DNA of 64,000 nt from Verrucomicrobium spinosum DSM 4136 = JCM 18804 (GTDB lineage: Bacteria > Verrucomicrobiota > Verrucomicrobiia > Verrucomicrobiales > Verrucomicrobiaceae). The notes under the pieces are model-generated. The model was not told the origin of the DNA. It did no database searches and saw only the letters and a program-made list of their open reading frames with translations. Position 1 is the first letter of the stretch. Each line of letters begins with the position of its first letter. The DNA lies in contig NZ_ABIZ01000001.1 in the NCBI RefSeq assembly GCF_000172155.1, positions 6,915,105-6,979,104 on the forward strand, given 5' to 3'. Made by a program: the position numbers and the translations under genes. Positions 5,791-46,167 of the stretch are shown here, in pieces.

Positions 5791-6180
5791 AGAGCCCAGC
5801 TTCGATCACATGCGGCCCCACACGTCTTCACCTTCCTCCCGCCGTCCCCGCGACACCAAAGGGCCCAAAGCAATCAAGCCACCACACCACCCCCAACACC
5901 TGGTCCCGCTTGCGGAACTATGGAGTGCGTGCGTGAAGCGCCGCTTTCGGGGGACCTGTTGAGGTTAGAACCACCATAACGCCCGAGCGAAGCCCACCAG
6001 CCCCAAACCCGGACTCTCAACAGCCCCCACGTTCCCCCTGCTCCCACGCTCAGGTTCCAGCCCCTCACCAGCGCCGCCAAAGCGGCGGTTCCCGAACGCA
6101 CTCCAAAGATGCTTCGCATCCAGGTGCTGGGAGCGCCAGGATGACCGCCCATCCCAGAGCCTCCGACCTCGGAGGAACAT
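5791..6180. other. Gene-free stretch upstream of the Roco gene
   Basis: GC-rich intergenic DNA. Short frames here have shadow-like compositions and none is supported. It leads into the octamer repeat at 6181. Confidence 0.4.
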
Positions 6181-6240
6181 CACTCCATCACTCCATCACT
6201 CCACCACTCCATCAACCAAGCACCAAGCACCAAGCACCAA
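6181..6240 (+). repeat. Octamer tandem repeat upstream of the Roco gene
   Basis: Four copies of an 8-bp unit, CACTCCAT/CACTCCAC (6181-6212), followed by a diverged unit and three 7-bp CACCAAG units. It belongs to the same CAC-rich 8-bp class as 9438-9485, 22436-22515 and 29831-29958. Confidence 0.75.
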
Positions 6241-9437: not shown

Positions 9438-9485
9438 CACCACCCCACCACCCCACCACCCCACCACCTCACCACCTCACCACCT
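9438..9485 (+). repeat. Octamer tandem repeat, six copies
   Basis: Six copies of CACCACCC/CACCACCT, with exact 8-bp periodicity. It lies upstream of the repeat block and decayed Roco copy at 9610-10691, matching the layout at 6181-6517. Confidence 0.75.
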
Positions 9486-10836: not shown

Positions 10837-13800
10837 ATGCAAACCCTGCGCATCTTCATCTCCAGCCCCGGCGACGTCGCCGAGGAACGCAAAATGGCGC
10901 AGCAGGTCATCGCCGCGCTTCAGCAGAGATACCGCGGCCACCTCACCCTGGAGGCAGTCGTATGGGAGCAACTCCCCATTCCCGCCACGAGCTCATTTCA
11001 GCAAGGCATTGATGCCGTCCTCACCGGCCCGGAAAAGATCGACATCGCCGTCTTCATCCTCTGGGCCCGGCTCGGCACCCCTTTGGAGTCCGGCATCACC
11101 AAACCAGACGGCACCCCCTACCTGAGCGGCACGGAGCGCGAGTTCGATCTCATGCTCGAAGCCTTCCAGCAATCTGGCCACCAACGCCCCCTCATCCTCA
11201 CCTACACCCGTCGGGATAGCGACGGATTTGGCACCAGCCTCCTTGCCGCAAAAGACGCCAGCCCCGCCATCCTCGAGCTGGTGAAGCAACGCGATGCCGC
11301 CCGGAAATTCATCCAGGAGCGTTTCCTCTCCCCCCAGGGGCAGAACCTCCACGCCTACCACTCCTATCAGGACCCCATCGGCTTCGCCCAGCGCCTCTCC
11401 AGCCACCTGCACCACGCCATCGACACCCTGCTGGGTCAAGACGCCCCCACCATCTCCTGGACAGACCTCCCCTACCGCAGCCTCCAGTACTTTGACATCC
11501 AGCATGCCCCCATCTTCTGCGGTCGGGAGGAGGAGACCTTTCACATCCTCCAACAGCTGCGGGACCAGCGCAAGGCAGGAACCGCCTTCGTCTGCATCCT
11601 GGGTGCCAGCGGCTCCGGCAAGTCATCCCTCGCTAGGGCAGGCGTCGCCGCCGCCCTCATGCAGCAGTCCTTTGAGGACGGCGTCAAAGCCTGGCTCCCC
11701 ACCGTGCTGGTCCCCAGCCGGGCCGCCCAACCCCTGCTCACCACCCTCGCCCACAGCCTGGGCACCGCCCTGCCCGCACTTCACCACCAGCGCCCCGGCG
11801 GCATCGCAGAGCTCGCCACCTGTCTGCAAGAGGAGAACCACACAGCCGCCGGCATCCTGCTCAGCCTCGCCGTCCACACCGCCCAGACCGCTGCTGGCGG
11901 CCCCATACGCCTCGTCATGGTGCTGGACCAGATGGAGGAGCTGTGGCCCGCCCCCTCCGAGGCCGGGGAGACAGAGTTATTCCTGCGAACCCTCGCCTGG
12001 CTCTGCGGAAAGAACCATCCCGTCGACATCATCGCCACCCTGCGCAGTGACTGTTATCACCATGCCCAGGCCTCGGAGGCCTACATGCAGATGAGGGGCG
12101 GACAGGGCCAGTTCGACCTCACCGCCCCCGGCGACGCCGCGCTCCACCGCATGATCACCCAGCCCGCCCGGCTCGCTGGGTTGACCTTTGAGCGGGATGT
12201 CCAGACCAGGCTCTCGCTCGATGAAAAACTGCTGGCCGAAGTCCGGCACCAACCCGACGCCCTCCCTCTGCTCCAGTACACCTTGAGCGAGCTTCATGAG
12301 AAGGCCGCCGGCACTCGCAAACTCACCTTCGCCGCTTACAAAGACCTCGGCGGCATAGAGGGTGCCATCGGTCGTGGGGCCCAGGCAGCATTCAGGGCCA
12401 CCAGCCAGGCCGCGCAGGCCGCCCTGGACGAGATCACCCCCGCCCTCGTCACCATCAGAGGCTCCGGCGAGTCCCAGATCCTCCGCCGCCTCGCCTCGTA
12501 CGAGGAAATCACCAATACCCCGGCCAGGAAGGAGCTCGTTGACGCCCTTGTCAGGGGCCGCTTCGCCATCGTCAGCAAGGAGGGCGTCACCTTCGCCCAT
12601 GAAGCCCTCCTCCGGCGCTGGGATCGTCTTGCTGAATCCATCGACAACAACGCCGAGCTCCTCCGCCTCCGCTCCAGCGTTGAGCAGAGCCATGACCAAT
12701 GGCTGAACGCCAACCAAGACCCCAGCCGCCTCCTACAGACAGGACTCCCTCTGGAGGAAGGCCGCCGCCTCCTGGACGCTCCCCAGACCCTGCTCAGCGA
12801 GCCGGTCAAGACGTACATCAATGCCTCCCTGAAAAGGGAGCAAAGCAGGAAACGCCACCTGAGACAGTCCTTGGTGGCCGCCGCTATCGCAGGCCTCACC
12901 ATCGTCGCCATGGTCATACGGAGCATCGAGTCCCAGCACTCCCAGAAGCGCTCCGATGCCCAGATCCACGAAGCCGTCCGCAACGCCTGGGGCAGCGCCC
13001 GGGAGGCCTTTGAAGTCCGCGATGACCCGCCCACAGGATTTGCCCATCTGGCCCGGGCCGTTTGGTTCAATGAAAAACTCCCACCCCACCTCCAGCTCAA
13101 CGAGCTGCACCAGGACGTCGCCCTGCGCCTCCTGCACGCCCCCACCGCCAACCCCCTGCCCGTGGCGGGCCCCGCCCACACCGGCTCCGGGGTAAACAGC
13201 GCCGCCTTCAGCAAGGATGGACGCCTGATCCTGACAGCCAGCGGCAAGCAGGCGCAGCTCTGGGACGCCCGCACGCTCCAGCCCATCGGTGCCCCGCTGC
13301 CGCATACCTCAGATGTTGAACTGGCCGTCTTCAACCCGGCCAACCATCGCTTCATCGCCACCATCGCCGGAGAGTCCGTCTTCCACTGGGATTTGGAAAA
13401 CAGCACACAATCCCTTGAGCTGAAACACCCAGAAACCGTCCGTCATCTCAACTTCAGCCGGGATGGCTCAAAGCTCGTCTCCAGTGGTCAGGACAATCAG
13501 GCAAGAGTCTGGGACCTCGCGACAGGCAAACTCTTGCAGTCCATCCGCCATGAAATTCAGTTCGCCGCGCAATTCAGCCCTGACGGTCGCCAGTTGCTCA
13601 TCTGCCCCATCCAAGACCAGGCCCAGTTGTTCGATCTCGCAACCTCAAAACCGTCCGGTCCAGCCATGCCTCATGCGGGCACCATCACGCATGCCACCTT
13701 CAGCCCTGCCAGCAACCTTATCCTCACGGCAAGCGGAAGCTACCGCGATGACAGAAGCGACTTCGACTACGCCTACGACAATACATTGCGCCTCTGGGAC

Positions 13801-16464
13801 GGCCAAAGCGGTGACCCCATCGGCAACCCCATGCTGCACGACAACGTCACCCAGGTCAGCTTCAGCGCTGACGGCGGCTTCATCCTCTCCGCCAGCACAG
13901 ACCGCGCCCGGGTCTGGGATGTCTTCACTCAAAAGCCCGCCTCCACCGCCGTTGACCTCTCCGATACCACCTCCTTTGTGAGAGAGGGCACCAACACCGG
14001 ATTCCGTCCAGACGGGCTCGCCTACGTCACCACCGTCAGCGGCTACAAGGCGGTCCTTTGGGACACCTTGAGCGGCACTCCGCTGGGCAGTCCCCTTTAT
14101 CATCAAGACAGCGTCTATCTGGCCGTGTTCAGCCCCGATGGATCACGGCTGCTCACCTACAGCGAGAGAGACGGCCTCCTGCTCTGGGACAGCAATACCA
14201 GCGCCCCTTCCGGGGAATATCTCGCCGGAAGGGGATCCGACCACGTGCAGTTCAGCCCGGACGGGCGGCACCTCCTGGCCATCTGCAATGACATCCACTA
14301 CGGCATCGCCACCTCCCCAGGCATCGTCCAGCGCTGGGACTACGCGTCCCGCACACTCCTAGAACCGCTCATCACCCATCATGGACGTATTCTTGCCGGT
14401 GAGTTCAGCCCGGATGGCGGGCGCTTCCTGATCGTTTGCGATGACAATCATGTGCGCACCTATCACACGCTGTCTGGCGAGCCGGCCAGTCCGCCCATCT
14501 CACTTCCCCATCCCGTCTCCTGCGCCCACTTCAGTCCAGATGGCGCCCGCATCCTCACTGGCTGTGGCGTACCCATGCCCCTCATCGAGAACGATGCGAA
14601 AACCTCCGTGACATGGAACCACACCACCGGCGAGGCACAGCTCTGGGACGCCACCTCTGGCACCCCGGTGCTCGCCTCCTTCCCTCACCAGGGCAGAGTC
14701 AGCACCGCCGCCTTTTCCCCAGACGGCAAACGCATCGTCACCGCCTGTGAAGACCGGACCGCCCGCCTCTGGGATGCCTCCTCTGGCCAGCCCCTGGGCG
14801 CGGTCATGCTCCACGAAGCTCCGGTCAATCACGCCAGCTTCAGCGCGGATGGGCGGATGCTTCTCACAGGCAGCGGCATTCCCCGCAGGGACGGCGGCCG
14901 CTTTGCAGGCAGCGCCAGACTTTGGGATGCCGCCACGGGGCGATCCCTGGCTCCACCCTATGCCACAGAAAAAACCGTCCGCCAAGTCCAGTTCAGTCCT
15001 CAAGGAAACAACTTCCTCACCATAAGCTGCCAGGAGGACAGGGCGGATGACACCCACCATCACTTGTGGAGCACCTCCGCAGACAGCCCGATCGCCGGCC
15101 CCCTGCACCCTGCCAAGAGACTCCATCCCCTGCTCTGGGGTGCCCCCCACTACGGCCTCGGGGCGGAAGAGAGCTTCTACTACGGAGAGTCCCTCTTCCA
15201 AGGCGTCTGCTCCGCTGCCTATCACCCCACAGCCCTCTCCTTTGCCACCAATGTCAGTGGGGGGACCAGCATCTGGAGCCCTCTTGACGGCAAGCCCTTG
15301 GGCCCCCTGCTCCCCCAGTCCGGTGCCGCCCACGGCATCGCCTACAGCCCAGATGGCACCTCCCTCGTCACCGCCCGCTCCCCCACCGGCACTCGTATCT
15401 GGGACGTCAATACCCGGGACATCCACACCACCAACAGCGACATCGAGATGATCGGTGGCGTCAGAATCAACAAGGACGGCCTCCGGCTTGCCGTGCCCAT
15501 GGAGGAGAGGCTCCATTGGAAGAATCATCTCCTTGCCGCAGATCCCGCCAGCCTCACCCCGTGGCAATCCCTTACGCGCTGGCATCTCAGCCCCCGCAAT
15601 GAACGCCCCTTCTCCCCCCACTCCCCGACCACGCTTGCAGAACAAATCACCAGACTCACACAGAAAGGCTTCCAAAGGGAACCCGCCGGCACCTACGAGC
15701 TCCAGCCCCTCAAGGAGGCTTATTTCCTTGATTCCACCCACCCGGGAGCACAGCTCCTGGCGGCCGGCATCTGGGCCGCTCATGCAGATTTCCTCGCACC
15801 AGGCACCTCTTTCTGGTTTTACCACAGACCCCTGATCGACGCCAAAAGCCACAGCGCCATCCATCATGCCGATAGGGCCCTCGCCCTCCATCCCGGCCTG
15901 CCGCTTGCCCTCCGGGCCAAAGGCTACTCCTTGTCCTGGTTGCAAGACCACCAGGGAGCCCTGGACGTCCGCCGCCAGTTGTGCGCCAGCCCGGAGGCCA
16001 TCGCGGCAGACTTCAGCCAGGCATTCCGATCCGCCGCCCGGGCTGGCCAGGGCCAGATCTGCCAGGAACTGATGGCTGCCGGTGAGAAACGGTTCCCAGG
16101 AAACTCAGAGATGCTCATCCACAAAGGCCTCGCCTTCATCGAGCTACCATCCCCCTCCGCCTCCATCGACGCCTTCGCAGCCGCCCAAGCCCAGAATCCA
16201 GACGTCTTTGGCGAGGAATACGAAGCACGCGCCGCCCAGGCCGCCGCCCAGTGGGCTCTGGGAACCACCGCCTCCCGGCAGCAGGCCGTCACGCTCTACA
16301 AAGCCCTCATCGACGACAACGATCCCACCCGACAGTACTGGGCTTCCCAGGCCTATGTGGAAACGGTCGTCGATCTCCAGTTCATCCAGCCCACCCTCCT
16401 CCAGGTTCTCACCGCCACCCTGGCCAAACATCCCGACCTGGCTCCCAAAGCCCCACCCGAGTAA
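10837..16464 (+). CDS. DUF4062-STAND NTPase-WD40 protein, copy 1
   Basis: An 1875-residue protein. It opens with a DUF4062 domain (MQTLRIFISSPGDVAEER), a Rossmann-like domain related to TIR/SEFIR modules. A STAND NTPase follows: FCGREEE entry, Walker A GASGSGKSS (about 256-264), Walker B LVMVLDQMEELW (about 358-369) and the arginine-rich IIATLRSDCYHHA sensor. A winged-helix-like region leads to one membrane helix (about 679-694), then a long WD40 propeller array (about 785-1530, FSPDG...LWD repeats) and a C-terminal helical, TPR-like tail. By analogy with STAND proteins, WD40 would sense, the NTPase oligomerise and DUF4062 signal. The membrane helix between NTPase and WD40 suggests these lie on opposite sides of a membrane. 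The start has no Shine-Dalgarno but a CTGCTCC tract. Confidence 0.9.
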   Translation: MQTLRIFISSPGDVAEERKMAQQVIAALQQRYRGHLTLEAVVWEQLPIPATSSFQQGIDAVLTGPEKIDIAVFILWARLGTPLESGITKPDGTPYLSGTEREFDLMLEAFQQSGHQRPLILTYTRRDSDGFGTSLLAAKDASPAILELVKQRDAARKFIQERFLSPQGQNLHAYHSYQDPIGFAQRLSSHLHHAIDTLLGQDAPTISWTDLPYRSLQYFDIQHAPIFCGREEETFHILQQLRDQRKAGTAFVCILGASGSGKSSLARAGVAAALMQQSFEDGVKAWLPTVLVPSRAAQPLLTTLAHSLGTALPALHHQRPGGIAELATCLQEENHTAAGILLSLAVHTAQTAAGGPIRLVMVLDQMEELWPAPSEAGETELFLRTLAWLCGKNHPVDIIATLRSDCYHHAQASEAYMQMRGGQGQFDLTAPGDAALHRMITQPARLAGLTFERDVQTRLSLDEKLLAEVRHQPDALPLLQYTLSELHEKAAGTRKLTFAAYKDLGGIEGAIGRGAQAAFRATSQAAQAALDEITPALVTIRGSGESQILRRLASYEEITNTPARKELVDALVRGRFAIVSKEGVTFAHEALLRRWDRLAESIDNNAELLRLRSSVEQSHDQWLNANQDPSRLLQTGLPLEEGRRLLDAPQTLLSEPVKTYINASLKREQSRKRHLRQSLVAAAIAGLTIVAMVIRSIESQHSQKRSDAQIHEAVRNAWGSAREAFEVRDDPPTGFAHLARAVWFNEKLPPHLQLNELHQDVALRLLHAPTANPLPVAGPAHTGSGVNSAAFSKDGRLILTASGKQAQLWDARTLQPIGAPLPHTSDVELAVFNPANHRFIATIAGESVFHWDLENSTQSLELKHPETVRHLNFSRDGSKLVSSGQDNQARVWDLATGKLLQSIRHEIQFAAQFSPDGRQLLICPIQDQAQLFDLATSKPSGPAMPHAGTITHATFSPASNLILTASGSYRDDRSDFDYAYDNTLRLWDGQSGDPIGNPMLHDNVTQVSFSADGGFILSASTDRARVWDVFTQKPASTAVDLSDTTSFVREGTNTGFRPDGLAYVTTVSGYKAVLWDTLSGTPLGSPLYHQDSVYLAVFSPDGSRLLTYSERDGLLLWDSNTSAPSGEYLAGRGSDHVQFSPDGRHLLAICNDIHYGIATSPGIVQRWDYASRTLLEPLITHHGRILAGEFSPDGGRFLIVCDDNHVRTYHTLSGEPASPPISLPHPVSCAHFSPDGARILTGCGVPMPLIENDAKTSVTWNHTTGEAQLWDATSGTPVLASFPHQGRVSTAAFSPDGKRIVTACEDRTARLWDASSGQPLGAVMLHEAPVNHASFSADGRMLLTGSGIPRRDGGRFAGSARLWDAATGRSLAPPYATEKTVRQVQFSPQGNNFLTISCQEDRADDTHHHLWSTSADSPIAGPLHPAKRLHPLLWGAPHYGLGAEESFYYGESLFQGVCSAAYHPTALSFATNVSGGTSIWSPLDGKPLGPLLPQSGAAHGIAYSPDGTSLVTARSPTGTRIWDVNTRDIHTTNSDIEMIGGVRINKDGLRLAVPMEERLHWKNHLLAADPASLTPWQSLTRWHLSPRNERPFSPHSPTTLAEQITRLTQKGFQREPAGTYELQPLKEAYFLDSTHPGAQLLAAGIWAAHADFLAPGTSFWFYHRPLIDAKSHSAIHHADRALALHPGLPLALRAKGYSLSWLQDHQGALDVRRQLCASPEAIAADFSQAFRSAARAGQGQICQELMAAGEKRFPGNSEMLIHKGLAFIELPSPSASIDAFAAAQAQNPDVFGEEYEARAAQAAAQWALGTTASRQQAVTLYKALIDDNDPTRQYWASQAYVETVVDLQFIQPTLLQVLTATLAKHPDLAPKAPPE

Positions 16465-16557
16465 GCCGCCCCACCCACAACAAAGGACTGCGCCGCTTCC
16501 AGCCCGCGGCACTCACGAGGAAGTCACCTGCCACCTGACAAAAAAACCGGCCGCTCC

Positions 16558-19500
16558 ATGAGAACCCTGCGCATCTTCATCTCCAGCCCGGGCGATGTGG
16601 CCGAGGAGCGAAAGCTCGCGCTTCAAGTCGTCTCCGCCATTCAGCAGCGCCGTCGGAGCCAGGTGCGCCTCGACCCTCTGGTGTGGGAACACTGGCCCCT
16701 CCCAGCCTCCAGCTCCGCCCAGGCTGGAGTCGATGCCAGACTGGCCGGGACAGAGGAAATAGACATTGCCATCTTCATCCTCTGGCACAGGATGGGGACC
16801 CCTCTGGAGCCCGGCATCGTCAAGCAGGACGGCTCACCCTACCTCAGCGGTACCGAGCGCGAGCTCGACCTCATGCTGGAGGCCTTCCAGCGATCCGGCA
16901 ACCAGCGCCCCCTCACTCTCGTCTATGCCCGCAAAGATGAAGAAGGGTTCAGGAAAAAACTCACCGGCACCGAACTGGACCGGGACGCCATCCGCGAGCT
17001 GCTGGACCAGCAACAAGCGTTGGAGCAGTTCATCAAAACGCAGTTTTTCAACGGCCAGAAGCAGAATCTGCACGCACGCCACACCTACCGGGATCCAGAA
17101 GGCTTTGCCCAGCGCCTTATATTTCATCTGGATGATGCCATCAGTTCCTTGCTCGCCCACAATCCCACCGCCCCCCTCTGGCAGGGGAGCCCCTACCGCA
17201 GCCTGGAGTATTTTGACCTCGATCACGCCCTCATCTTCTGCGGTCGGGATGAGGAAACAGGTGATGTACTGGACCAGTTGAGTGAACAACGTCAGGCAGG
17301 CCGCCCCTTTGTGGTCATTCTGGGAGCCAGCGGTGCGGGCAAGTCCTCCCTGGCCCGCGCTGGCGTGGCCGCTTTCCTGATCCAACAGCCCTATCTTGCC
17401 GGCATCAAGAAATGGCTCCCCGTCATCATCATTCCGGGGCGGCAGCCCCACTCCCTGCACACCACCCTCGCCTTGGGCCTGGAATCGGCGCTGCCCGCGT
17501 TGAGCCAGCTGCCAGGCGGCATCGAGGCACTCTCCTCGAACCTGGACCAGCAGAACTTCGAAGCGGCCAGCATCCTCCTCACGCTGGCCTTTCAGTCAGC
17601 CGAAAGAGAGGCCGGTGGCCCCGTCCGCATCATCCTGGTGGTCGACCAGCTCGAAGAGCTCTGGCTCAACTCCGGCTCCACCCAGGTGGAACCTGAGACC
17701 TTCTTCCGCATCCTGGACTGGCTCTGCACCCACCATCCTGTGGACATCATCGCCACCCTGCGGAGTGATTGCTACCACCTGGCCCAGTCCTGCGAGACCT
17801 TTATGAAACTAAAGGTCGGCGCGGGCCAGTTTGACCTCACCGCGCCAGGCGACCCAGCCCTGCGGCAGATGATTACTGAACCAGCCCGGCTCGCAGGGCT
17901 CACGTTCGGGAGGGATCCCGAGAGCCAGCAGGCTCTCGATGAGCAGCTGCTGGCCGCGTCCCGTCGCCAGCCCGACGCCCTCCCGCTGCTGCAGTACACC
18001 CTGAGCGAGCTCTCTCAGCGGGTGAATGATGCTCGGGAGCTCACCTTCGCCGCCTACCAGGAGCTCGGCGAGATTGAAGGGGCCGTCGGTCGCAGAGCCC
18101 AGACCGCCTTTGACGCCATCGGCCCGGAGGCGCAAGCCACGTTCGATGAAATCACCTTTGCCCTCGTGACCGTGTCTCCCTCCGGCGAATCCCAGGCCCA
18201 CCGCCTGCTCGCCCCACACGAGGAAATCACCAATACACCGGCCAAAAAGGAACTCGTCAACGCTCTGATCCAGCATCGGCTGCTCATCTCCAGCGCAGAG
18301 GGGGTCACCCTCGCCCACGAGGCCCTGCTGCGGCGCTGGGAAAAGCTGGCAGACGCCATCGCCCGCCACACAGAAACGCTGCGGCTCCGGGCCAGCATTG
18401 AACAAAACTTCCTCCAGTGGCAAAGGGCCGCCGAGGACGCCAGCCTCCTCCTGCAGAAAGGACTCCCCCTGGAGGAAGGCCGCCGACTCCTGAAGGCCCC
18501 CCAAGGCCTCATCAGCGAGCCTGTCTTGAAGTACATTCGAGCCTCTTTGAAGGAGGCTCGAAAGAATCAGATCGTGAAATGGGGCGTAGGGACCCTGGCA
18601 TCCATTGTCATTGTGGGCCTGGTCATTGCCTATCTCCTCCTTCGGACATCCCGGGAGCTCGCGGACGAGAACCTCCAGCTCTCCAACGCGAACCTCCAGG
18701 AGGCTGTACTCAATCACTGGGGCAGCGCCCGCGAGGCCTTTGAGCTCAACGATGATCCGCCCGCAGGCTTTGCCCACCTGGCCAGCGCCGTTCGGTTCAA
18801 TGAAAAACTCCCCGGTGACCTCCAGACTGCCAATCTCCACCAGGATGCCGTCTTGCGGCTCCTCCTCGCCCCCACGGTCAATGCCCTCCCCGCCACCACA
18901 CCAGCGCTGCCGGGAAAATGGATCAGTCACGCAGAGTTCAGCAGAGATGGTAGTCAGATTCTCACCTGTGCCGGATCATCTGTGAACCTCTGGGATGGCC
19001 ATACGCTCAAGGCCCTGGTAGCTCCTCTCACGCTCCCTGCGGAGGCCACCTTCGCCGCCATCAGCCCTGCCAAGACCACGCTCATCGCCATCGTGGCAGA
19101 TCAGACCGTGTACCTGTGGGACCCCTCTGGAATCACCCCCGCGACGCCCCAGCAACTGCCCCATCCCGAAAAAGTCCGCCATCTCGCCTTCAGCCCGGAT
19201 GGTTCGAGACTCATCACCAGCAGCGTCGACGGTCTGGCGCGGATCTGGACTCTGGGAGGCGCGAACCAGGTGAACCTCACCGTCCCTCACCAGGCTGAGT
19301 TTCTGCCGCAGTTCAGCCCAGACGGCACCAAGATTCTGGCAGGCAGCTCTCCCAAATCGGCCAGCCTTTTTGACGCCGCCACTGGCAAGCCCTGCAGCCA
19401 GCCCATGTCACACCAGGGCGCGGTCACCCACGCCTACTTCAACCCGGATGGCACCCGCGTCTTGACGGCCAGCGGGTGCAACCCCTCAGAAACCAGTTCT

Positions 19501-22293
19501 GATCCCGTCTGCGACAACACCATTCGCATCTGGGACAGCCTCTCCGGCAAAGCAGAAGGATCCCCCCTGCGGCATGACAACGTCACTCAAGTCATACTCA
19601 GTACCGATGGGGACTTCATCCTCTCCGTCAGCGCCGAGAAAGTCCAGGTGTGGGATGTGGAGCGGCAGACCCTCGTGACTCCCGCCATCAATCTGCAACC
19701 CGTCTTCTCCCATACATCGTCCACTCGATTCGCCAGCTTCCATCCAGATGGTTTTTCATTCGCCACCGCCTCCGGCAACCGCCATGCCATTCTGAAAGAC
19801 ATCTTCACCGGCAAGGCCATCGGGAGCCCACTTTACCATCAGGGCAGCGTTTACCTCACCTTGTTCAGCCCGGATGGCCAGAGACTGCTGACTGGCTCCG
19901 ATGGCGGTGGCCTGCTCCTTTGGCACCCGGACACCGGCGCCCCTTCCGGCGAATGCCTGGACCCCGGCCCGGCCGATCACGTCCAGTTCAGCCCCGATGG
20001 CCGCTACCTGCTGGCCATCGACAACACGGTCGATTCAGCGCGCCCGAACACCGTGGGCACCGCGCGATGGTGGGACCTTGCCACCCGCCAGCCCGCCGCA
20101 CCTCCCCTCGTCTGCAGGGCGCCCATCCTCGGTGCCGATTTCAGTCCAGACTCCCAAAGGCTCCTCATCGTCTCTGGAGGTGGCGTGCAGGTGTACCGGA
20201 CAGCTTCTGGCGCGCCCGCCAGCCCCAGCATCTTCAGCCCTCTCCCCATCTGGTGCGCCCGCTTCAGTCCTGATGGCCATCTCATTGCCACCGGGAGCGC
20301 CCCTGTCAGACCCCGCCCGGCCAGCTACGCGGAAATAAATGTCTCCTCGAACCCACTCCGCGGTGAAGCGCGGCTCTGGCGCTCCGCCACCGGCCGTCAG
20401 ACCGGCCGCACCCTGCACCATGAAGGCCCGGTCAACTCGCTCCTCTTTTCACCGGACGGCACCCGTCTGCTTACCGCCAGCCAGGACAAAACATCGCGGA
20501 TATGGAGCGTCCCCGACGGCCATCCCGTGGGCGACATCATGCTCCATGATCATCCCGTCAACGATCTCAGCCTGGATGCCGGAGGCAAGATCCTCCTCAC
20601 CGGCTCCGGTGTTTCACAATCCGAAAAAGTACAGCAGGCTGGAGCACTCAGGCTCTGGGACCCCCTCACCGGCAAACCAGCCTCTCCAGTGATGGAGACT
20701 CACTCACTGACGCGCAAGGTCCGCCTCGCACCCGGGGGCGAGACATGGCTCACCCTTGTCGGAGGAAGCGCCAACAACGCGGAGTCGCAATACTCCTTAT
20801 GGTTCCCGCAGAAGGCCCGGAGAGGCTTCGTACCCCTGCCTCTGAAGAAAAGAATCCGTTCAGCATTATGGACGACTCCAGAGAAGGGGACGTGGCGAGG
20901 AGACTACGTCACGTCATTCGGGTATGGCGGTTGGGACAGTTGGAGCTACAGTGGCAGCGGCAGTTACTACTCGTACAGCTATGACTATTACTATCGCCTC
21001 AGCGTTGCCCCTCATAGTGAACCTTGCCCCCTCTCCTATCACCCTAAAGAATCCTCCATCGCCACCTTGCAGGAGGGAGGGTTGAGTTTCTGGAGCACGA
21101 CCGATGGCAGGGCGATCGGTCCTCGCGTCCTCATCACCAGCGCCAGCAGGGACACACCCAGCGTCTGCTACAGTCCGGATGGCAGATGGCTGGCTACCGC
21201 TGGCGGCAAATGCGGCATGCGGCTCTGGGATGTGGGTACCACCGGAGTCCTCGCCTCCGCAGAAGACCTGCAAATGATCGGCGGCGTCAGCGTCTCCCAC
21301 GAAGGACTCCTACAGCCCGTGCCGCTGGAAGATCGCCTGCAATGGCGGGCTCAACTGCTCGACTCAGCCCCTCAGGCAGACTCGCCATGGCGCAGCATCG
21401 TGCGTTGGCACCTTACTCCCAGGAACTCCCGCCCGCTCTTCCCTCACTCACCGCTCTCACTGGCCGATCAGGTGAACTGTTTGTCCCAAAGAGCGTTCGA
21501 CACCGATTCTTCAGGGGAGGGTGACCAGGACATCCTCAAAGAAGTCTATTTCCTGAATCCCAGTCATCCCCTGGCAAACCGCCTGGCCGCAGGACTCCTG
21601 GCCAACTATGCCAGCCAAATTGCCTCCCCCTCAGAGGACTCCTCGTCCACCTCCGGGGAGGAAAGAGACGCCCGCAGAAAGAGCGCCATCAAGTATGCAG
21701 ACAAGGCCCTCTCCCTAGATCCCGCCTCTCCCGGTGCCCTACGGGCCAAAGCCAACGGCTTGTGGTGGCTGAAGCAACCCCAAGAGGCCCTGGCCGTCCG
21801 CCAGCAGCTGTGCGCCACGCCTCATGCCACGGAGGTGGACTTTGGCGATGCCATGCGAGAAGCGGGTCGCGCTGGCAATCGTACCATCTTCCAGCTCTTG
21901 CTGGCGGATGGAGAGCGGCGTTTCCCCGGCTCATTCCCCCTCCTCCTGCAGAGAGCCCACGCCTGCCTGGAGTTGAAGGATCCCGCTGAAGCAGTCGAGG
22001 CCTTCGCCGCCGCCAGGACGCAAAACCCGAGGGCATTCCACGAAGACGACCTCTCGCACCCCGGCTATGCAGCCGCTCTCTGGGCAGTGGGCACCCCTGA
22101 ATCGAAGCGCCAGGCGATCTCCGACTTCAGCGCCTTGATCGGTCGCAGAAGCGACTACGGAACTGCCTGGGCCTCCCGGCAGGACATCGAATCCAACTCC
22201 GACATCGAGCACTTCCGGCCCATCCTGCTCGACCTCCTCACCGCCACCCTGGCCAAACATCCCGACCTGGCCCCCAAAGCCCCACCCAAGTAA
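16558..22293 (+). CDS. DUF4062-STAND NTPase-WD40 protein, copy 2
   Basis: A 1911-residue tandem paralogue of the preceding gene with the same order: DUF4062 (MRTLRIFISSPGDVAEER), STAND NTPase (Walker A GASGAGKSS at about 256-264, Walker B ILVVDQLEELW at about 358-368), membrane helix (about 680-697, IVIVGLVIAYLLL), WD40 array and helical tail, both ending LTATLAKHPDLAPKAPP. The two are clearly diverged along their length, so the duplication is not recent. A glycine/serine/tyrosine-rich insertion (SWSYSGSGSYYSYSYDYYY, about 1460-1480) in the last propeller region is longer than the matching spot in copy 1. Its start lies 93 bases after copy 1, so the two are likely co-transcribed. Confidence 0.9.
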   Translation: MRTLRIFISSPGDVAEERKLALQVVSAIQQRRRSQVRLDPLVWEHWPLPASSSAQAGVDARLAGTEEIDIAIFILWHRMGTPLEPGIVKQDGSPYLSGTERELDLMLEAFQRSGNQRPLTLVYARKDEEGFRKKLTGTELDRDAIRELLDQQQALEQFIKTQFFNGQKQNLHARHTYRDPEGFAQRLIFHLDDAISSLLAHNPTAPLWQGSPYRSLEYFDLDHALIFCGRDEETGDVLDQLSEQRQAGRPFVVILGASGAGKSSLARAGVAAFLIQQPYLAGIKKWLPVIIIPGRQPHSLHTTLALGLESALPALSQLPGGIEALSSNLDQQNFEAASILLTLAFQSAEREAGGPVRIILVVDQLEELWLNSGSTQVEPETFFRILDWLCTHHPVDIIATLRSDCYHLAQSCETFMKLKVGAGQFDLTAPGDPALRQMITEPARLAGLTFGRDPESQQALDEQLLAASRRQPDALPLLQYTLSELSQRVNDARELTFAAYQELGEIEGAVGRRAQTAFDAIGPEAQATFDEITFALVTVSPSGESQAHRLLAPHEEITNTPAKKELVNALIQHRLLISSAEGVTLAHEALLRRWEKLADAIARHTETLRLRASIEQNFLQWQRAAEDASLLLQKGLPLEEGRRLLKAPQGLISEPVLKYIRASLKEARKNQIVKWGVGTLASIVIVGLVIAYLLLRTSRELADENLQLSNANLQEAVLNHWGSAREAFELNDDPPAGFAHLASAVRFNEKLPGDLQTANLHQDAVLRLLLAPTVNALPATTPALPGKWISHAEFSRDGSQILTCAGSSVNLWDGHTLKALVAPLTLPAEATFAAISPAKTTLIAIVADQTVYLWDPSGITPATPQQLPHPEKVRHLAFSPDGSRLITSSVDGLARIWTLGGANQVNLTVPHQAEFLPQFSPDGTKILAGSSPKSASLFDAATGKPCSQPMSHQGAVTHAYFNPDGTRVLTASGCNPSETSSDPVCDNTIRIWDSLSGKAEGSPLRHDNVTQVILSTDGDFILSVSAEKVQVWDVERQTLVTPAINLQPVFSHTSSTRFASFHPDGFSFATASGNRHAILKDIFTGKAIGSPLYHQGSVYLTLFSPDGQRLLTGSDGGGLLLWHPDTGAPSGECLDPGPADHVQFSPDGRYLLAIDNTVDSARPNTVGTARWWDLATRQPAAPPLVCRAPILGADFSPDSQRLLIVSGGGVQVYRTASGAPASPSIFSPLPIWCARFSPDGHLIATGSAPVRPRPASYAEINVSSNPLRGEARLWRSATGRQTGRTLHHEGPVNSLLFSPDGTRLLTASQDKTSRIWSVPDGHPVGDIMLHDHPVNDLSLDAGGKILLTGSGVSQSEKVQQAGALRLWDPLTGKPASPVMETHSLTRKVRLAPGGETWLTLVGGSANNAESQYSLWFPQKARRGFVPLPLKKRIRSALWTTPEKGTWRGDYVTSFGYGGWDSWSYSGSGSYYSYSYDYYYRLSVAPHSEPCPLSYHPKESSIATLQEGGLSFWSTTDGRAIGPRVLITSASRDTPSVCYSPDGRWLATAGGKCGMRLWDVGTTGVLASAEDLQMIGGVSVSHEGLLQPVPLEDRLQWRAQLLDSAPQADSPWRSIVRWHLTPRNSRPLFPHSPLSLADQVNCLSQRAFDTDSSGEGDQDILKEVYFLNPSHPLANRLAAGLLANYASQIASPSEDSSSTSGEERDARRKSAIKYADKALSLDPASPGALRAKANGLWWLKQPQEALAVRQQLCATPHATEVDFGDAMREAGRAGNRTIFQLLLADGERRFPGSFPLLLQRAHACLELKDPAEAVEAFAAARTQNPRAFHEDDLSHPGYAAALWAVGTPESKRQAISDFSALIGRRSDYGTAWASRQDIESNSDIEHFRPILLDLLTATLAKHPDLAPKAPPK

Positions 22294-22365: not shown

Positions 22366-22435
22366 GCCTCATTCAGGGAGATTCATCGCAACCCACTCGC
22401 CCCATCGCCTCCCCATTGAAGGCGGTTTGCATCAT

Positions 22436-22515
22436 CACTCCCTCACTCCCTCACTCCCTCACTCCCTCACTCCCTCACTCCCTCACTCCACCACTCCACC
22501 ACTCCACCACTCCAC
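22436..22515 (+). repeat. Octamer tandem repeat, ten copies
   Basis: Six copies of CACTCCCT (22436-22483) followed by four of CACTCCAC (22484-22515), with exact 8-bp periodicity. It lies 130 bases upstream of the NB-ARC-TPR start codon. Confidence 0.85.
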
Positions 22516-22645
22516 CCCGCCCCCTTGCGGAAAAATCGTTTCCCGCCCACGGCACCGCCATCTCCCAAACCTGGATGCGGATTCAGCACAATGTTGCTCA
22601 ATCCGCACTTTCCTTACGCATCATCCCGGGCATCCTGCCTCCTGC

Positions 22646-25252
22646 ATGGCCATCCAGATATTCATCTCCTGTGCCTCGGAGGAATTTCGCGAACTCCGCG
22701 AGAAACTTCGTCGCCACCTTGCAGCGGCCAGGTGCCACGTCCTCACCCAGGAAGACTTCCCTCAGGAACCCACGGGTCTGCTGGAAAAGCTCGACAGCTA
22801 CATCCGCGATTGCGATGTCATCATTCACATCATTGGGGCATGCTCAGGCAGTATTGCAGACCCCACCGCTGTTTTGCGCTATCTCCGCCTCAATGAGGCT
22901 TTCCTCACAGCCACCCCGGCCCTTCGCTCGCTCTTGGGTGACTTCTCCACCCTGAGCTACACCCACTGGGAGGGCTTCATGGCCCTGCACCACCAGCGTC
23001 GGATCCAGCTCTACTATTTGGAAGGCAGTCAGCCTCAGCATCTCCAGCGCATGAAGCTAGCCCTGCCCCAACGCCACGGCAGCCGCTTTGTCGATGACAC
23101 CGACCTCTTCGGCCAGTTGATTGGTGACCTCCGGGATCTCATCCCGCCGCTCCCAGCCACGCAGGTCAACAACCTGCCCGCCACCATTGGCGACTATTTT
23201 AGAGGGCGGGAGGGCACCCTCCAGGAGCTCCATCTACGCCTTGGCGGCACCTCCCGGCGCATGCCGCTCGCTATTCACGGCTTGGGCGGCATCGGCAAGA
23301 CCCGCCTCTCCATCGAGTACGGTCACCGCTACGCCAGCGCGTACTCCACCCGCATCCTCGTCACCGCAGACACCCCGCAAAATCTGGAGCGCCAGCTCGC
23401 CGCTCTCACGGCCCCTACGGCACTGGACCTGCCCGCCCATCACTCCTCGGAGGAAACCATCCGCACTGCCGCCGTCCTCCGGTGGCTGCGCGAGCACGAA
23501 GGTTGGCTCCTGATCCTGGACAACGTGGATACCGTCGCCTCCGCACGCGCCGTGGAAGCCCTCCTGCCCCACCTGGATCGCGGCCACGTGCTCATCACCT
23601 CCCGCTTGAGCGACTTTGCCAGCACCGTCGCCACCTACGATCTACAGCTCCTGCCCGCGGAGGATGCCGTGGAGTTCCTCACCCTGCGCACTGGCACCCG
23701 CAGGTTCAGGACCCCCACAGACGACGCCGATGCCGCCACCCTCGCCAGACAGCTTGATGGCCTCGCCCTCGCGCTGGAGCAGGCCGCCGCCTATATCGCA
23801 GAGAAGCGCCTCAGCTTTTCCCGGTACCTCCAGCACTACGAGTCCCGCCGCGCCGAGATGCTCCACTGGCATCATGCCCAGAAGATGCAGTACCCCGCGC
23901 CTGTGGCCATCACCTGGCTTGCCTCCTTTGAACAACTGGGGGACGCTGCCCGTCACCTGCTGGACACCCTCTCCTTCCTCGCCCCCGAGCCCATCCCCAG
24001 AGCCTTGGTGGAACAGGCCGGAGACGTACCGCTGGACGAGGCCCTTGTGGAGCTGTCAGACTTCTCCTTGGTTCGCTTTCTCGACACCCCGCCCGGCACC
24101 TTCTCCATGCACCGCCTGGTTCAGGAAATTGTGAGAGATCGCGCAGAGTGCACGTCCCCCGCCAGCCAGTTCGGCCTGCGGGCCACCTCTCTCATCGTCC
24201 AGTGGGCCCCCTCCCACAGCCACAACGCCCAGACCTGGTCCCGATGGCAGCTCATTGCCCCCCACTGCAGGCACTTGCTCGATCTGACAGAGCCTTGGGG
24301 AGACCCAGACCCCGCCCCCCGCCTTCTCGCACTCTACGCCAGCTACCTCCAGCACCGGGATGGCGACTACGCAGCCGCAGAGGGACTCTACCGGCGCGCC
24401 TTGTCAGTCCGCGAAGCCCGGCTCGGACCGGATCACCCCGACACCCTCTCCAGCGTGGCAGATCTGGCCGATCTCCTCACCAACCAGAACAACTTTGCCG
24501 AGGCAGAACCCCTTTCTCTGCGCGCCTGGTCAGCACGTCTGCAGCTCCTGGGCCCCGACCATCCCGACACGCTCACCAGCATCAACCACCACGCTCAGCT
24601 CCTCTATGGCAAAGGCGAGTTTACAGCCGCCCTGCCCCTCCTGCGCGATACGCTGGCCGCTCGTGAACGCATCCTCGGCGAGGACGCCCTGGAGACGCTG
24701 GACACGGTCAGCGACCTCGCGATGGTCCTTCGGGAGCTGGGAAACAACGACGAAGCCCTGCCCTTGCTGCGCCGCGCCCTTGCCGGGAACGAGGCATTTC
24801 TGGGGCCAGATCACCCGGCCACTCTCACCAGCCTCAGCAATCTGGCCCTCCTGCTGGAAGATGAGGGCAACTACGCTGCTGCCGAGCCGCTACGCCACCG
24901 GGATGTAGAAGCCTCAGAACGCATCCTGGGCCCAGAACACCCCGAGACACTCACCAGCCTCAACAACCTCGGTCACTTGCTTCATTGCAAAGGGGACTAT
25001 GCCAGCGCGCTCAAGTACTACCAGAAGACGCTCCGGCTTCGCGAGAAAATCCTGGGCCGCCAAAACCCCGACACCCTTATCAGTCTCAACAACCTGGCCG
25101 CCCTCTATCGCGACCAGGGAAACTACGGGGCCGCCGAACCCCTCTACCGCCGCGCCTCTGAAACCGCCGACCAAGTTTTGGGCGCTGATCACCCCAATGC
25201 CCGGCACTTCCGCAAAAACTGGGACTTCTGTAGATCGAAATTGGAGGGGTAG
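22646..25252 (+). CDS. DUF4062-like/NB-ARC/TPR protein
   Basis: An 868-residue STAND protein. The N-terminal domain (IQIFISCASEEFRELREKLR, then LLEKLDSYIRDCDVIIHIIG, residues 1-115) resembles DUF4062/TIR-like modules. An NB-ARC NTPase has Walker A GLGGIGKT (212-219), Walker B LLILDNVD (288-295) and the HVLITSR sensor (about 315-321). A winged-helix region carries MHRLVQE. The C-terminus is six or more 42-residue kinesin-light-chain-type TPRs (about 555-850; ALSVREARLGPDHPDTLSS style). The open frame extends 219 bases upstream through the octamer repeat, but the ATG at 22646 matches the first strand of the domain. By family knowledge this is an ATP-switched sensor with a TPR ligand-binding surface; the effector role of the N-terminus is inferred. 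Confidence 0.9.
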   Translation: MAIQIFISCASEEFRELREKLRRHLAAARCHVLTQEDFPQEPTGLLEKLDSYIRDCDVIIHIIGACSGSIADPTAVLRYLRLNEAFLTATPALRSLLGDFSTLSYTHWEGFMALHHQRRIQLYYLEGSQPQHLQRMKLALPQRHGSRFVDDTDLFGQLIGDLRDLIPPLPATQVNNLPATIGDYFRGREGTLQELHLRLGGTSRRMPLAIHGLGGIGKTRLSIEYGHRYASAYSTRILVTADTPQNLERQLAALTAPTALDLPAHHSSEETIRTAAVLRWLREHEGWLLILDNVDTVASARAVEALLPHLDRGHVLITSRLSDFASTVATYDLQLLPAEDAVEFLTLRTGTRRFRTPTDDADAATLARQLDGLALALEQAAAYIAEKRLSFSRYLQHYESRRAEMLHWHHAQKMQYPAPVAITWLASFEQLGDAARHLLDTLSFLAPEPIPRALVEQAGDVPLDEALVELSDFSLVRFLDTPPGTFSMHRLVQEIVRDRAECTSPASQFGLRATSLIVQWAPSHSHNAQTWSRWQLIAPHCRHLLDLTEPWGDPDPAPRLLALYASYLQHRDGDYAAAEGLYRRALSVREARLGPDHPDTLSSVADLADLLTNQNNFAEAEPLSLRAWSARLQLLGPDHPDTLTSINHHAQLLYGKGEFTAALPLLRDTLAARERILGEDALETLDTVSDLAMVLRELGNNDEALPLLRRALAGNEAFLGPDHPATLTSLSNLALLLEDEGNYAAAEPLRHRDVEASERILGPEHPETLTSLNNLGHLLHCKGDYASALKYYQKTLRLREKILGRQNPDTLISLNNLAALYRDQGNYGAAEPLYRRASETADQVLGADHPNARHFRKNWDFCRSKLEG

Positions 25253-26637: not shown

Positions 26638-27050
26638 GCGAAGGAGGGTGGAAGCTTTATTTGCTCTTAAAAACAGCAGAGAAGACCACCTCCGGCAAAC
26701 AATACCTGGGTCTAAATGTCCCTACTCCACGCAGGTCAACTCTCACTCGCCCAATGGGGTCGCCTCAGCATCGCTGCTTGATCCGCTCTTCAGCTTCAGG
26801 TCCGCTGAGGCCTCAGAGACAAAGATGCCATCGGACCTCCCGATCCACACGCTCCCGGCAGCCGTCCCGATGGACGGTATCGGGCGACCGCTCACCTGTA
26901 TCAGCATCGCGACAATCCCCCCCCGATCCTGGCAGCCTCTGCCAAAAATTTGCAATTCGGAGCATTGCCAAACACCGGGCGTTTCAATCATTATCTCGTG
27001 GCAAAAAAAATCGCGCGGCATGGATTCTGCGTGGAAAAACGCCCTCCCTT
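26638..27050. other. Divergent intergenic region
   Basis: Lies between the leftward lipoprotein pair and the rightward SLOG-like gene, so promoters for both are expected here. The frame of the rightward gene stays open back to 26661, but that extension is arginine/serine-rich and shadow-like. I read it as non-coding. No specific promoter box is convincing. Confidence 0.45.
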
Positions 27051-29711: not shown

Positions 29712-29830
29712 CAACGTTATTTCCCAAACTTACGCATTCCTAACTCCTAAACACCCTCCGCAGAAGACTCTGGGAGCCCGCCGCCACCGCCTGACATCAC
29801 TCACTCCACCCCTCCACCCCTCCACCCATC

Positions 29831-29958
29831 CACCTCTCCACCTCTCCACCTCTCCACCTCTCCACCTCTCCACCTCTCCACCTCTCCACCTCTCCACCTC
29901 TCCACCTCTCCACCTCTCCACCTCTCCACCTCTCCACCTCTCCACCTCTCCACCTCTC
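29831..29958 (+). repeat. Octamer tandem repeat, sixteen copies, abutting a start codon
   Basis: Sixteen uninterrupted copies of CACCTCTC, ending six bases before the ATG of the STING-like gene. The whole ribosome-binding region of that gene is therefore repeat. Less regular CCTCCACC units extend it upstream to about 29803. The unit is a pure pyrimidine strand apart from one A. As 8 is not a multiple of 3, copy-number change would shift any upstream in-frame fusion. Confidence 0.95.
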
Positions 29959-29964
29959 CACCCC

Positions 29965-43582: not shown

Positions 43583-44392
43583 ATGCCCTACTCCAACCTT
43601 CCCATCGGCGTCGCCAACCCCGGCCTCGTCGTCATCCTTGTGGACCAGTCTAGTTCCATGAGCGAGACATATGCACCTCCGCACAATCGTGCTGAGTTCG
43701 CCGCCATCGCCGTCAACCGCTGCATCTATGAAATCCTCGCCAAGTGCCGGGACGGCCAGAACGTGCGCGACCGGTGCCACATTGCCGTGCTGGGCTATGG
43801 TCTTCAGGCCCGCAATCTCATCGTCGTCGGCCGCCCCTCAGATCTCGAGGCCAGAATCCTCCGGTTCGAGGATCTAAAACAGCGTGTTCCAGACGGGGCC
43901 GGTGGCCTGGTGGACATTGATTTCAAGCTCCCTGTCTGGATTGATGCCACCGCATCCGGCTCCACCCCCATGGCCGAGGCCTTCAACTTCGCCTCAGAAA
44001 TGATCCAGGCCTGGACCCGGGACAACCCCGGCAACTTCCCGCCCGTCTGCATCAACATCACCGATGGAGAACCCAATGACGAGACCGCAGCAGAGAATGC
44101 CGCCCGCGCCCTCATGCAGACCGGCACCACAGACGGCACCACCCTCCTCTTCAATGCGCATATCGGCAATCCCGCCGATGGCGAGGTAAAGATGCCCGCC
44201 TCCGAGGGCCACCTCAGCAATCAGTACGCCCGGTTCCTTTACCGCATCTCCAGTGGCGTGCCCCAGCCCCTGGAGGCGGCAGCTCGCAATGTCGGTTTCA
44301 ACGTCCAGTCCGGGTCCCGGGGCATGCTCATGAACGCCGGCCCTGAAGCCCTCACCGCGCTCATCCAGTTTGGCTCCCAGCACGCCCGGTAA
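43583..44392 (+). CDS. TerY-like vWA domain protein
   Basis: A 269-residue single vWA domain. The metal-ion-dependent adhesion site is complete: DxSxS as D21-Q-S23-S-S25 in VVILVDQSSSMSE, the threonine in TASGSTPMAEAF, and the aspartate in INITDGEPND. Length and lack of extra domains match TerY-type proteins, which act with a PP2C phosphatase and a protein kinase in the TerY-P triad of Ter-linked stress systems (Anantharaman and colleagues). The next two genes are exactly such a phosphatase and kinase, so the assignment is strengthened by context. It probably binds a phosphorylated or metal-dependent partner. Confidence 0.9.
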   Translation: MPYSNLPIGVANPGLVVILVDQSSSMSETYAPPHNRAEFAAIAVNRCIYEILAKCRDGQNVRDRCHIAVLGYGLQARNLIVVGRPSDLEARILRFEDLKQRVPDGAGGLVDIDFKLPVWIDATASGSTPMAEAFNFASEMIQAWTRDNPGNFPPVCINITDGEPNDETAAENAARALMQTGTTDGTTLLFNAHIGNPADGEVKMPASEGHLSNQYARFLYRISSGVPQPLEAAARNVGFNVQSGSRGMLMNAGPEALTALIQFGSQHAR

Positions 44393-44435
44393 GGCACCAA
44401 CTCATCACACTATCCCGGCCGCCGCCCGTAGAACC

Positions 44436-46133: not shown

Positions 46134-46167
46134 CGGAGGCAACCAGAACGATCACAGCCCCATTGCC

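What the first reader, a model, noticed from the sequence alone, without database searches (positions are those of the whole stretch)
10837..22293. Tandem DUF4062-STAND-TM-WD40 giants with a membrane helix between switch and sensor
Two 1.9k-residue paralogues share every domain. The hydrophobic helix at about residue 680-697 separates NTPase and WD40, so sensing could occur on the other side of the membrane. Divergence through the whole length and a Tyr/Ser/Gly-rich insertion in copy 2 suggest different ligands.
Basis: partly seen in the sequence, partly recalled or inferred. Interest (0 to 1): 0.55.

Follow-up and report, generated by a model that had tools for sequence, protein, structure and literature searches.

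The report
Predicted membrane-spanning suicide-receptor gene pair
Two neighbouring giant bacterial genes look like relatives of animal cell-death sensors in which a membrane helix is predicted to put a NAD-destroying half inside the cell and the sensing half outside, so the cell could answer trouble at its surface by self-poisoning.

Summary
Two tandem genes (1875 and 1911 aa) share DUF4062, nSTAND1 NTPase, one hydrophobic helix, two WD40 propellers and a C-terminal helical-repeat region. The helix follows the NTPase, inside one long continuous helix in a confident model (burial not measured). It is a family trait: 62 of 73 analysable nSTAND1 ORFs, from eight phyla by record title, have it about 46 residues past the NTPase, and 61 of those 62 carry more Lys/Arg on the NTPase side; two control segments show no bias. 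Copy 1's own helix is weaker (Arg695; marginal insertion score). The refuting condition (a buried NTPase core helix) is not supported. Best reading: single-pass receptors with a cytosolic TIR-like NADase and switch and a periplasmic sensor. DUF4062 was reported in 2026 as an antiphage NADase; its conserved Glu is E102 here. Trigger, NADase activity and antiphage role are inferred. The copies differ most in helix and propellers, so different ligands are possible, not shown. Architecture parallels TEP1/NWD1/APAF-1; the membrane crossing between switch and propellers is what differs. New variant of a known kind. Topology reporter fusions would settle it.

The parts
10837..16464 (+). copy 1, 1875 aa: DUF4062 - nSTAND1 - TM helix - two WD40 propellers - helical repeats
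10849..11148 (+). copy 1 DUF4062 (TIR-like) domain, residues 5-104
   Evidence: 23.5 bits, under cut-off 24.7; profile hit to TEP1 TIR-like domain; model
11140..11142 (+). copy 1 codon E102, proposed catalytic Glu of the NADase domain
   Evidence: 55 Glu and one gap in 56 rows; 22 of 22 DUF4062 rows; aligned with the second Glu of TEP1 TEME
11470..12723 (+). copy 1 nSTAND1 NTPase, residues 212-629 (Walker A 256-263, Walker B D364/E367/E368; motif names recalled)
   Evidence: fold like Orc/Cdc6 AAA+, Z 19
12868..12927 (+). copy 1 predicted transmembrane helix, residues 678-697 (uncharged core about 678-694, then Arg695)
13159..15420 (+). copy 1 two WD40 propellers, residues about 775-1118 and 1124-1528
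15499..16428 (+). copy 1 C-terminal helical-repeat (TPR-like) region, residues about 1555-1864
   Evidence: (TPR_16 E 0.0084, below cut-off)
16558..22293 (+). copy 2, 1911 aa, same architecture
16570..16866 (+). copy 2 DUF4062 domain, residues 5-103
   Evidence: (21.0 bits, under cut-off)
17191..18438 (+). copy 2 nSTAND1 NTPase, residues 212-627
18580..18642 (+). copy 2 predicted transmembrane helix, residues 675-695
20917..21006 (+). copy 2 Tyr/Ser/Gly-rich insertion, residues about 1454-1483, in the second propeller region
21940..22032 (+). copy 2 TPR unit in the C-terminal helical region
   Evidence: TPR_14 31.7 bits, over cut-off 23.5

Best explanation
Each gene encodes a single-pass inner-membrane receptor of the STAND class. 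The N-terminal DUF4062 (TIR-like NADase) and nSTAND1 switch lie in the cytosol, one helix crosses the membrane, and the tandem WD40 propellers and helical repeats lie on the other side, in the periplasm. A ligand on the propellers would change how the subunits assemble, load ATP onto the NTPase and cluster the DUF4062 domains, which would then destroy NAD+ and stop the cell (abortive infection or another suicide response). Shown here by computation: domain order, helix, its conservation, charge bias and place after the NTPase, and conservation of nucleotide-binding residues and E102. Inferred from published work on other proteins: NADase activity, activation by oligomerisation, antiphage role. 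Unknown: the ligand, and whether the two copies see different ones.
For: Helix KD 2.25 and 2.59. Of 81 nSTAND1 ORFs in 79 loci, 8 were cut too early; 62 of the other 73 have a segment with KD 1.6 or more, median 46 residues past the NTPase; K+R higher on the NTPase side in 61 of 62, mean 6.1 v 2.5; 54 of those 62 carry the DUF4062 motif SSPGD in their first 250 residues. Controls in the same proteins: strongest segment inside the NTPase 22 higher, 27 lower, 13 equal (n 62); strongest segment after the helix 22, 21, 16 (n 59); the helix is the global maximum in 60 of 62. In an overlapping set from relatives' genomes, window copies included, 25 of 26 have it: 23 biased the same way, 2 equal, 0 reversed (one of the 23, L056, ends at the helix). 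K/R and D/E frequencies round to zero in columns 680-695 of 56 sequences. AF2 model, mean pLDDT 90.6: one helix 655-726 after the NTPase. Cytosolic-side swaps to TIR, protein kinase, Trans_reg_C; a PEGA domain follows the helix in L087. DUF4062 as antiphage NADase: PMC13174449 (text parts 1-2 of 6 and passages). Conflict-gene neighbourhood.
Against: No experiment. Copy 1's helix carries Arg695, and a rough insertion score with recalled scale values is marginal for it (+0.7) against -2.05 for copy 2. WD40 and TPR modules are mostly cytosolic in known proteins (recalled). Cysteine content does not differ before and after the helix (0.79% v 0.72%). Of the 11 ORFs scored negative, 3 (L081, L135, L137) have no such segment at this place, 6 have weak ones of KD 1.26-1.59, 2 end before it; a Chlorohelix DUF4062-nSTAND1-FGE protein has none, so the helix is not required for the switch. 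One homologue (L150) has the reverse charge bias. Model confidence falls from 97 to 77 along the membrane segment and under 60 after residue 700. DUF4062 scores just under Pfam's cut-off in both copies. Three of four human DUF4062 proteins tested by others were inactive.
Confidence: 0.57

Rival explanations
1. Membrane-tethered but all-cytosolic receptor: the helix dips into or lies in the inner leaflet, merely tethering the receptor, and the propellers sense a cytosolic phage protein.
For: WD40/TPR sensors of known STAND proteins are cytosolic (recalled; the APAF-1 mechanism is described). Some relatives lack the helix yet keep a repeat C-terminus (L135, L137), so the sensor can work without it. 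Copy 1's insertion score is marginal.
Against: A mostly uncharged helix of about 19 or more residues with the same charge asymmetry in 61 of 62 is the signature of a full single crossing. In 59 of 62 no further segment of KD 1.8 or more follows that could bring the chain back.
Confidence: 0.21
2. Conditional membrane effector: the helix is hidden in the resting complex and inserts on activation, so membrane damage is (part of) the output.
For: Hydrophobic helices act as outputs in several defence systems (recalled). The helix is the fastest-diverging part between the copies.
Against: Consistent positive flanks and a median KD of 2.23 suggest ordinary insertion during synthesis; the protein already has a separate effector domain, and the effector type varies while the helix stays.
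Confidence: 0.1
3. Not immune: an envelope-stress or developmental signalling receptor, with DUF4062 as a non-catalytic scaffold.
For: A Mesorhizobium relative carries a transcription-factor domain in place of the effector (CadC/ToxR-like layout) and another a kinase: the chassis is a general transmembrane switch. NWD1, NWD2 and NPHP3 were inactive in vitro.
Against: E102, which was not a selection criterion, is Glu in all 55 rows that have the column and in 22 of 22; neighbours include TIR, STING-like and ternary-conflict-like genes; patchy distribution within the genus.
Confidence: 0.2
4. The hydrophobic stretch is a buried core helix of the NTPase winged-helix region (the finder's own refutation).
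For: It lies close to the NTPase, NTPase cores contain hydrophobic helices, and I could not measure burial.
Against: It lies after the NTPase in a 72-residue continuous helix, outside the nSTAND1 profile match, is missing in some relatives, and is far more hydrophobic than the strongest NTPase segment (median 2.23 v 1.27).
Confidence: 0.03

Closest known systems
TEP1 / NWD1 / NWD2 (animal DUF4062-NACHT-WD40 proteins; PMC13174449)
   Same: DUF4062, then a STAND NTPase, then WD40 repeats; the TEP1 TIR-like domain is the only PDB sequence that the DUF4062 profile finds up to E 10 (E 0.00095), with the second Glu of TEP1 TEME on E102.
   Different: The main text of that paper has no word beginning with 'membrane' or 'transmembrane'; the NTPase family is NACHT there, nSTAND1 here.
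Swarozyc (KpSwz; bacterial DUF4062 antiphage NADase, PMC13174449)
   Same: Same effector domain family, bacterial.
   Different: KpSwz is DUF4062 plus an HTH/winged auxiliary domain that binds the phage portal; no STAND, propeller or membrane helix is described for it in the parts read.
APAF-1
   Same: Adaptor - STAND - two WD40 propellers; the propeller model matches murine Apaf-1 (3sfz, Z 26.2 over 595 residues, rmsd 13.9).
   Different: CARD instead of DUF4062 and NB-ARC instead of nSTAND1; soluble (recalled).
nSTAND1 conflict systems (PMC8195603) and DGR-diversified STAND sensors (PMC10907252)
   Same: Same NTPase clade. The DGR paper predicts cytoplasmic NACHT and C-type-lectin domains in one target and periplasmic ones in another, so membrane-related STAND sensors have been suggested.
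   Different: Sensors of the DGR targets are C-type-lectin/FGE folds; the passages seen describe no DUF4062-nSTAND1-TM-WD40 protein.
CadC/ToxR-type one-component membrane receptors (recalled)
   Same: Cytosolic output, one helix, periplasmic sensor; one relative carries a Trans_reg_C output domain.
   Different: No ATP-driven switch in CadC/ToxR (recalled).

Membership tests
STAND NTPases, nSTAND1 clade (PF20703) | Profile match over the whole domain with Walker A and B | tested here: met
   276.4 and 270.1 bits v cut-off 27.1; Walker residues present in both copies; AAA+ fold of the copy 1 model
DUF4062 TIR-like NADases | Profile match to PF13271 | tested here: inconclusive
   23.5 and 21.0 bits v cut-off 24.7; homology supported by the profile hit to the TEP1 TIR-like domain and by L050 and L161 over the cut-off
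DUF4062 TIR-like NADases | Conserved catalytic Glu | tested here: met
   E102: 55 Glu and one gap of 56; 22 of 22; equivalence to TEP1 E1008 assumes that the 220-residue chain ends at residue 1113
DUF4062 TIR-like NADases | NAD+ hydrolysis | not testable with these tools
   needs biochemistry
Swarozyc antiphage system | DUF4062 plus HTH/winged portal-binding auxiliary domain | tested here: not met
   C-terminus here is nSTAND1-TM-WD40
APAF-1/TEP1-like STAND with tandem WD40 propellers | Two WD40 propellers C-terminal to the STAND NTPase | tested here: met
   propellers at model residues 78-421 and 427-831, best Z 37.1 and 38.6; model pTM only 0.45
APAF-1/TEP1-like STAND with tandem WD40 propellers | Soluble, propellers able to fold back on the NTPase | tested here: not met
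   predicted membrane crossing between them; a prediction, not a measurement
Single-pass membrane receptor, N-in/C-out | One hydrophobic helix with positive-inside flanks | tested here: met
   K+R 6 v 2 (copy 1) and 5 v 2 (copy 2) in 15 flanking residues; family
Single-pass membrane receptor, N-in/C-out | Measured topology | not testable with these tools
   needs reporter fusions
Known antiphage systems (PADLOC-DB 2.0.0) | Match over the whole of a listed protein | tested here: not met
   only PDC-S60 over about 105 positions of a 906-position model (31.3 and 30.6 bits), plus short mad3/mad8 stretches

The most novel reading that the evidence does not exclude
A widespread class of transmembrane bacterial NLR-like receptors: TEP1/APAF-1-like proteins whose switch and suicide enzyme are inside and whose interchangeable sensor (WD40, TPR, FGE, PEGA and others) is outside, letting a cell commit suicide on signals at its envelope before or without anything entering the cytosol.
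Probability: 0.5. Interest if true: 0.78.

Novelty: new variant of a known kind. Interest (0 to 1): 0.55.

Why it matters
The bacterial NLR-type immune receptors whose mechanism is worked out watch the cytosol (recalled). If the sensors here are periplasmic, STAND suicide receptors also watch the envelope, and the ATP-driven assembly step must pass a signal through a single helix. The same chassis carries DUF4062, TIR, kinase or transcription-factor outputs, so it would be a modular transmembrane switch shared by immunity and signalling. It also gives a bacterial counterpart of TEP1, whose WD40 signal is stated to be unknown.

Tried and rejected
Buried NTPase helix: not supported. Other membrane segments in the two copies: none with KD over 1.4. 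Cysteine content as a mark of the far side: uninformative. Phylum search with residues 1-769 at E 1e-20: 8 of 387 genomes, the window's own included. Plasmid search: 5 records, none covering 80% of the query. Loop against strand divergence of the propellers: small difference, no claim on ligands. The fold search of the 748-residue model was filled by its NTPase, so the TIR-like fold of DUF4062 was not tested by fold. The last part of L087 looked FecR-like to my eye, but Pfam matched only PEGA.

Literature: searches (PubMed Central, open licences only) listed no paper that I could see describing DUF4062-nSTAND1-TM-WD40 proteins; most listed papers were seen as listings only. Read: PMC13174449, text parts 1-2 of 6 plus passages; PMC7159879, PMC10907252, PMC8195603, PMC4452313, PMC2853523, passages only.

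Rows and selection: of 81 nSTAND1 ORFs, 8 cut by contig ends were left out; of the other 73, 11 did not reach KD 1.6 (2 end early, 6 weak, 3 without; L081 has membrane-like stretches further on, by eye). Three of the 62 rows with under 150 residues after the helix were left out of the domain tally. For the 56-row alignment I took the 54 of 62 rows with an SSPGD motif and the two copies, so the invariance of that motif is by construction, and rows without a helix are absent from it; the scan also used a Walker A pattern, so Walker A invariance is partly by construction. No locus was chosen by the helix or by E102. In one search, 25 of 26 have the helix (L054 not, 1.49); the set includes the two window copies, and L073 and L049 are the same contigs as L091 and L097. 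Related sequences are not independent, so the binomial p-values overstate the case.

Full report
OBSERVATION. Two same-strand ORFs, 10837-16464 and 16558-22293, encode 1875 and 1911 residues, with 93 bases between stop and start. Pfam gives nSTAND1 at 212-629 and 212-627 (E 7.4e-82, 6e-80) and a large set of WD40 families. DUF4062 scores 23.5 and 21.0 bits when the N-termini are scanned alone, just under its cut-off of 24.7. The C-terminus is weakly TPR-like. The hydrophobic helix is the one outstanding segment in both proteins: KD 2.25 at 679 and 2.59 at 677, next best 1.21 and 1.34. Copy 1's segment contains Arg695, and a rough insertion score with recalled values is +0.7 for copy 1 and -2.05 for copy 2: copy 1 is the weaker case. 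The Tyr/Ser/Gly-rich insertion of copy 2 is real.

PLACE IN THE GENOME. The window is one stretch of an 8.22-Mb single-contig genome; its seven other PF20703 matches are partial and weak, the best 27.3 bits. Relatives placed as same order and same class include contigs that equal in length named Verrucomicrobia and Opitutales contigs (128,401 and 21,761 bases), so the host is most likely a verrucomicrobial bacterium (inference). Of three other genomes of the genus, G003 has five long nSTAND1 matches on one contig; the other two have only partial ones (best 37.1 and 26.1 bits): a patchy distribution.

THE HELIX IS A FAMILY TRAIT. From 79 named loci I took 81 ORFs with nSTAND1; 8 were cut off too early. 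Of the other 73, 62 have a segment with KD of at least 1.6 just past the NTPase, at a median of 46 residues (5th-95th percentile 42-57), with median KD 2.23 against 1.27 for the strongest segment of the NTPase. Of the 11 that do not, 2 end early, 6 have segments of 1.26-1.59, and 3 (L081, L135, L137) have none there; L135 and L137 have a charged stretch instead. 54 of the 62 carry the SSPGD motif of DUF4062 near the start. In a set from relatives' genomes with the two window copies 25 of 26 have the helix. In the alignment of 56 rows the K/R and D/E frequencies round to zero in columns 680-695. Between the two copies the helix is 25% identical against 65% before and 64% after: hydrophobicity is kept, sequence is not, as expected for a membrane anchor.

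TOPOLOGY. K+R in the 15 residues before and after the helix: higher before in 61 of 62 (mean 6.1 v 2.5). The same measure on the strongest hydrophobic segment of the NTPase gives 22 higher, 27 lower, 13 equal (n 62), and on the strongest segment after the helix 22, 21 and 16 (n 59). The two copies have 6 v 2 and 5 v 2. By the positive-inside rule (established knowledge) the NTPase side is cytosolic, which ATP use also demands, so the propeller side is outside. The exception, L150, has the opposite bias and a further hydrophobic segment. Eight phyla by record title share the pattern (Verrucomicrobia, Planctomycetes, Pseudomonadota, Bacteroidetes, Desulfobacterota, Armatimonadetes, Wallbacteria, Bacillota).

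STRUCTURE. An AlphaFold2 model of residues 1-748 (56 rows, mean pLDDT 90.6, pTM 0.83) shows DUF4062, the NTPase and then one continuous helix 655-726 that carries the membrane segment. Confidence falls from 97 at 661-670 to 77 at 691-700 and below 60 after that. The NTPase part matches Orc/Cdc6-type AAA+ (Z 19.0, 263 aligned). I had no coordinates to measure burial. The model of residues 698-1875 (pLDDT 74.5, pTM 0.45) has two propellers at about 775-1118 and 1124-1528, best Z 37.1 and 38.6 to WD40 proteins, and Apaf-1 at Z 26.2 over 595 residues (rmsd 13.9), followed by helical repeats.

EFFECTOR. The DUF4062 profile finds one PDB sequence, the TEP1 TIR-like domain (11gz_A, E 0.00095). A 2026 preprint reports DUF4062 as a TIR-like NADase: antiphage in the Swarozyc system (catalytic E97) and active in human TEP1 (E1008), but not in NWD1, NWD2 or NPHP3. 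E102 here is Glu in all 55 rows that have that column, in 22 of 22 DUF4062 rows including the two other DUF4062 genes of the window, and falls on the second Glu of TEP1 TEME. That this is E1008 assumes that the 220-residue chain ends at residue 1113.

MODULARITY. On the cytosolic side the same NTPase-helix chassis carries TIR (L045, L046, L048), a protein kinase (L077) or a Trans_reg_C DNA-binding domain (L160). On the far side, of 61 members scanned (the two copies and 59 of the 62), 26 match WD40-type families and 22 match TPR_12 (the two may overlap). Of ten scanned singly, one each has FGE-sulfatase, Sel1, RHS repeats (with PDZ below cut-off) or PEGA, two have only matches below cut-off (TPR, squalene-hopene cyclase), and four have no match at E 0.01. 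That PEGA domains are extracytoplasmic is recalled. A Chlorohelix DUF4062-nSTAND1-FGE protein has no helix, so the family also has soluble members.

NEIGHBOURHOOD. The window also holds an LRR-Roc-COR-TIR protein (6518-9403), a DUF4062-NB-ARC-TPR protein (ORF 22427-25252), a prokaryotic-STING protein with a weak NDT-like match (29518-31107), a DUF4062-TPR protein (31104-35252), a TIR protein (36973-38037) and TerY-like, PP2C-like and (below cut-off) TCAD9-like genes (43583-47754). This is a dense conflict-gene region.

MECHANISM, STEP BY STEP. Anchoring and orientation: predicted, strong for the family, weaker for copy 1. Ligand binding by propellers outside: inferred. ATP-dependent assembly through the membrane-tethered NTPase: inferred from the STAND class. 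NAD+ loss by clustered DUF4062: inferred from Swarozyc and TEP1. Cell arrest protecting neighbours: inferred. Different ligands for the two copies: compatible with faster propeller divergence (42% v 61%), not shown.

NOVELTY. The parts are all known. What I did not find in the held library is the DUF4062-nSTAND1-TM-WD40 arrangement and its breadth. One paper predicts periplasmic NACHT and C-type-lectin domains for one target protein of a bacterium, so membrane-related STAND sensors have a precedent. Hence a new variant of a known kind.

Noticed in passing
6178-6214, 9438-9484, 22435-22513, 29804-29962: C-rich 8-base tandem arrays lie near the edges of several conflict genes; possible recombination or slippage sites.
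   Followed up: no
22427-25252 and 31104-35252: Two more DUF4062 genes: one DUF4062-NB-ARC-TPR (highest KD 1.44) directly after copy 2, and one DUF4062-TPR, which has a hydrophobic segment of KD 1.95 near residue 171. Four DUF4062 genes within 25 kb.
   Followed up: partly
29518-31107: Prokaryotic STING domain (44.8 bits) behind a weak nucleoside-deoxyribosyltransferase-like match (below cut-off); the DUF4062-TPR ORF overlaps its end by 4 bases. The listed start runs through a tandem repeat, so the true start is probably later.
   Followed up: partly
43583-47754: TerY-like vWA, PP2C-like and weakly TCAD9-like genes, as in ternary conflict systems; the last two each carry a strong hydrophobic segment, KD 2.71.
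   Followed up: no
26661-29711: 1016-aa ORF without a Pfam family at E 0.001 and with six membrane-like segments of KD 1.6 or more.
   Followed up: no
L045-L048 (G003 contig 135): A same-genus genome has five nSTAND1 proteins within about 83 kb, three with TIR N-termini and all five with the helix.
   Followed up: partly
L160:3152-7117: Mesorhizobium plasmid protein with Trans_reg_C - nSTAND1 - membrane helix, a CadC/ToxR-like layout with an ATP switch.
   Followed up: partly
52837-63024 (-): 3395-aa ORF, not examined beyond a hydropathy scan with one segment of KD 1.73 at residue 9.
   Followed up: no
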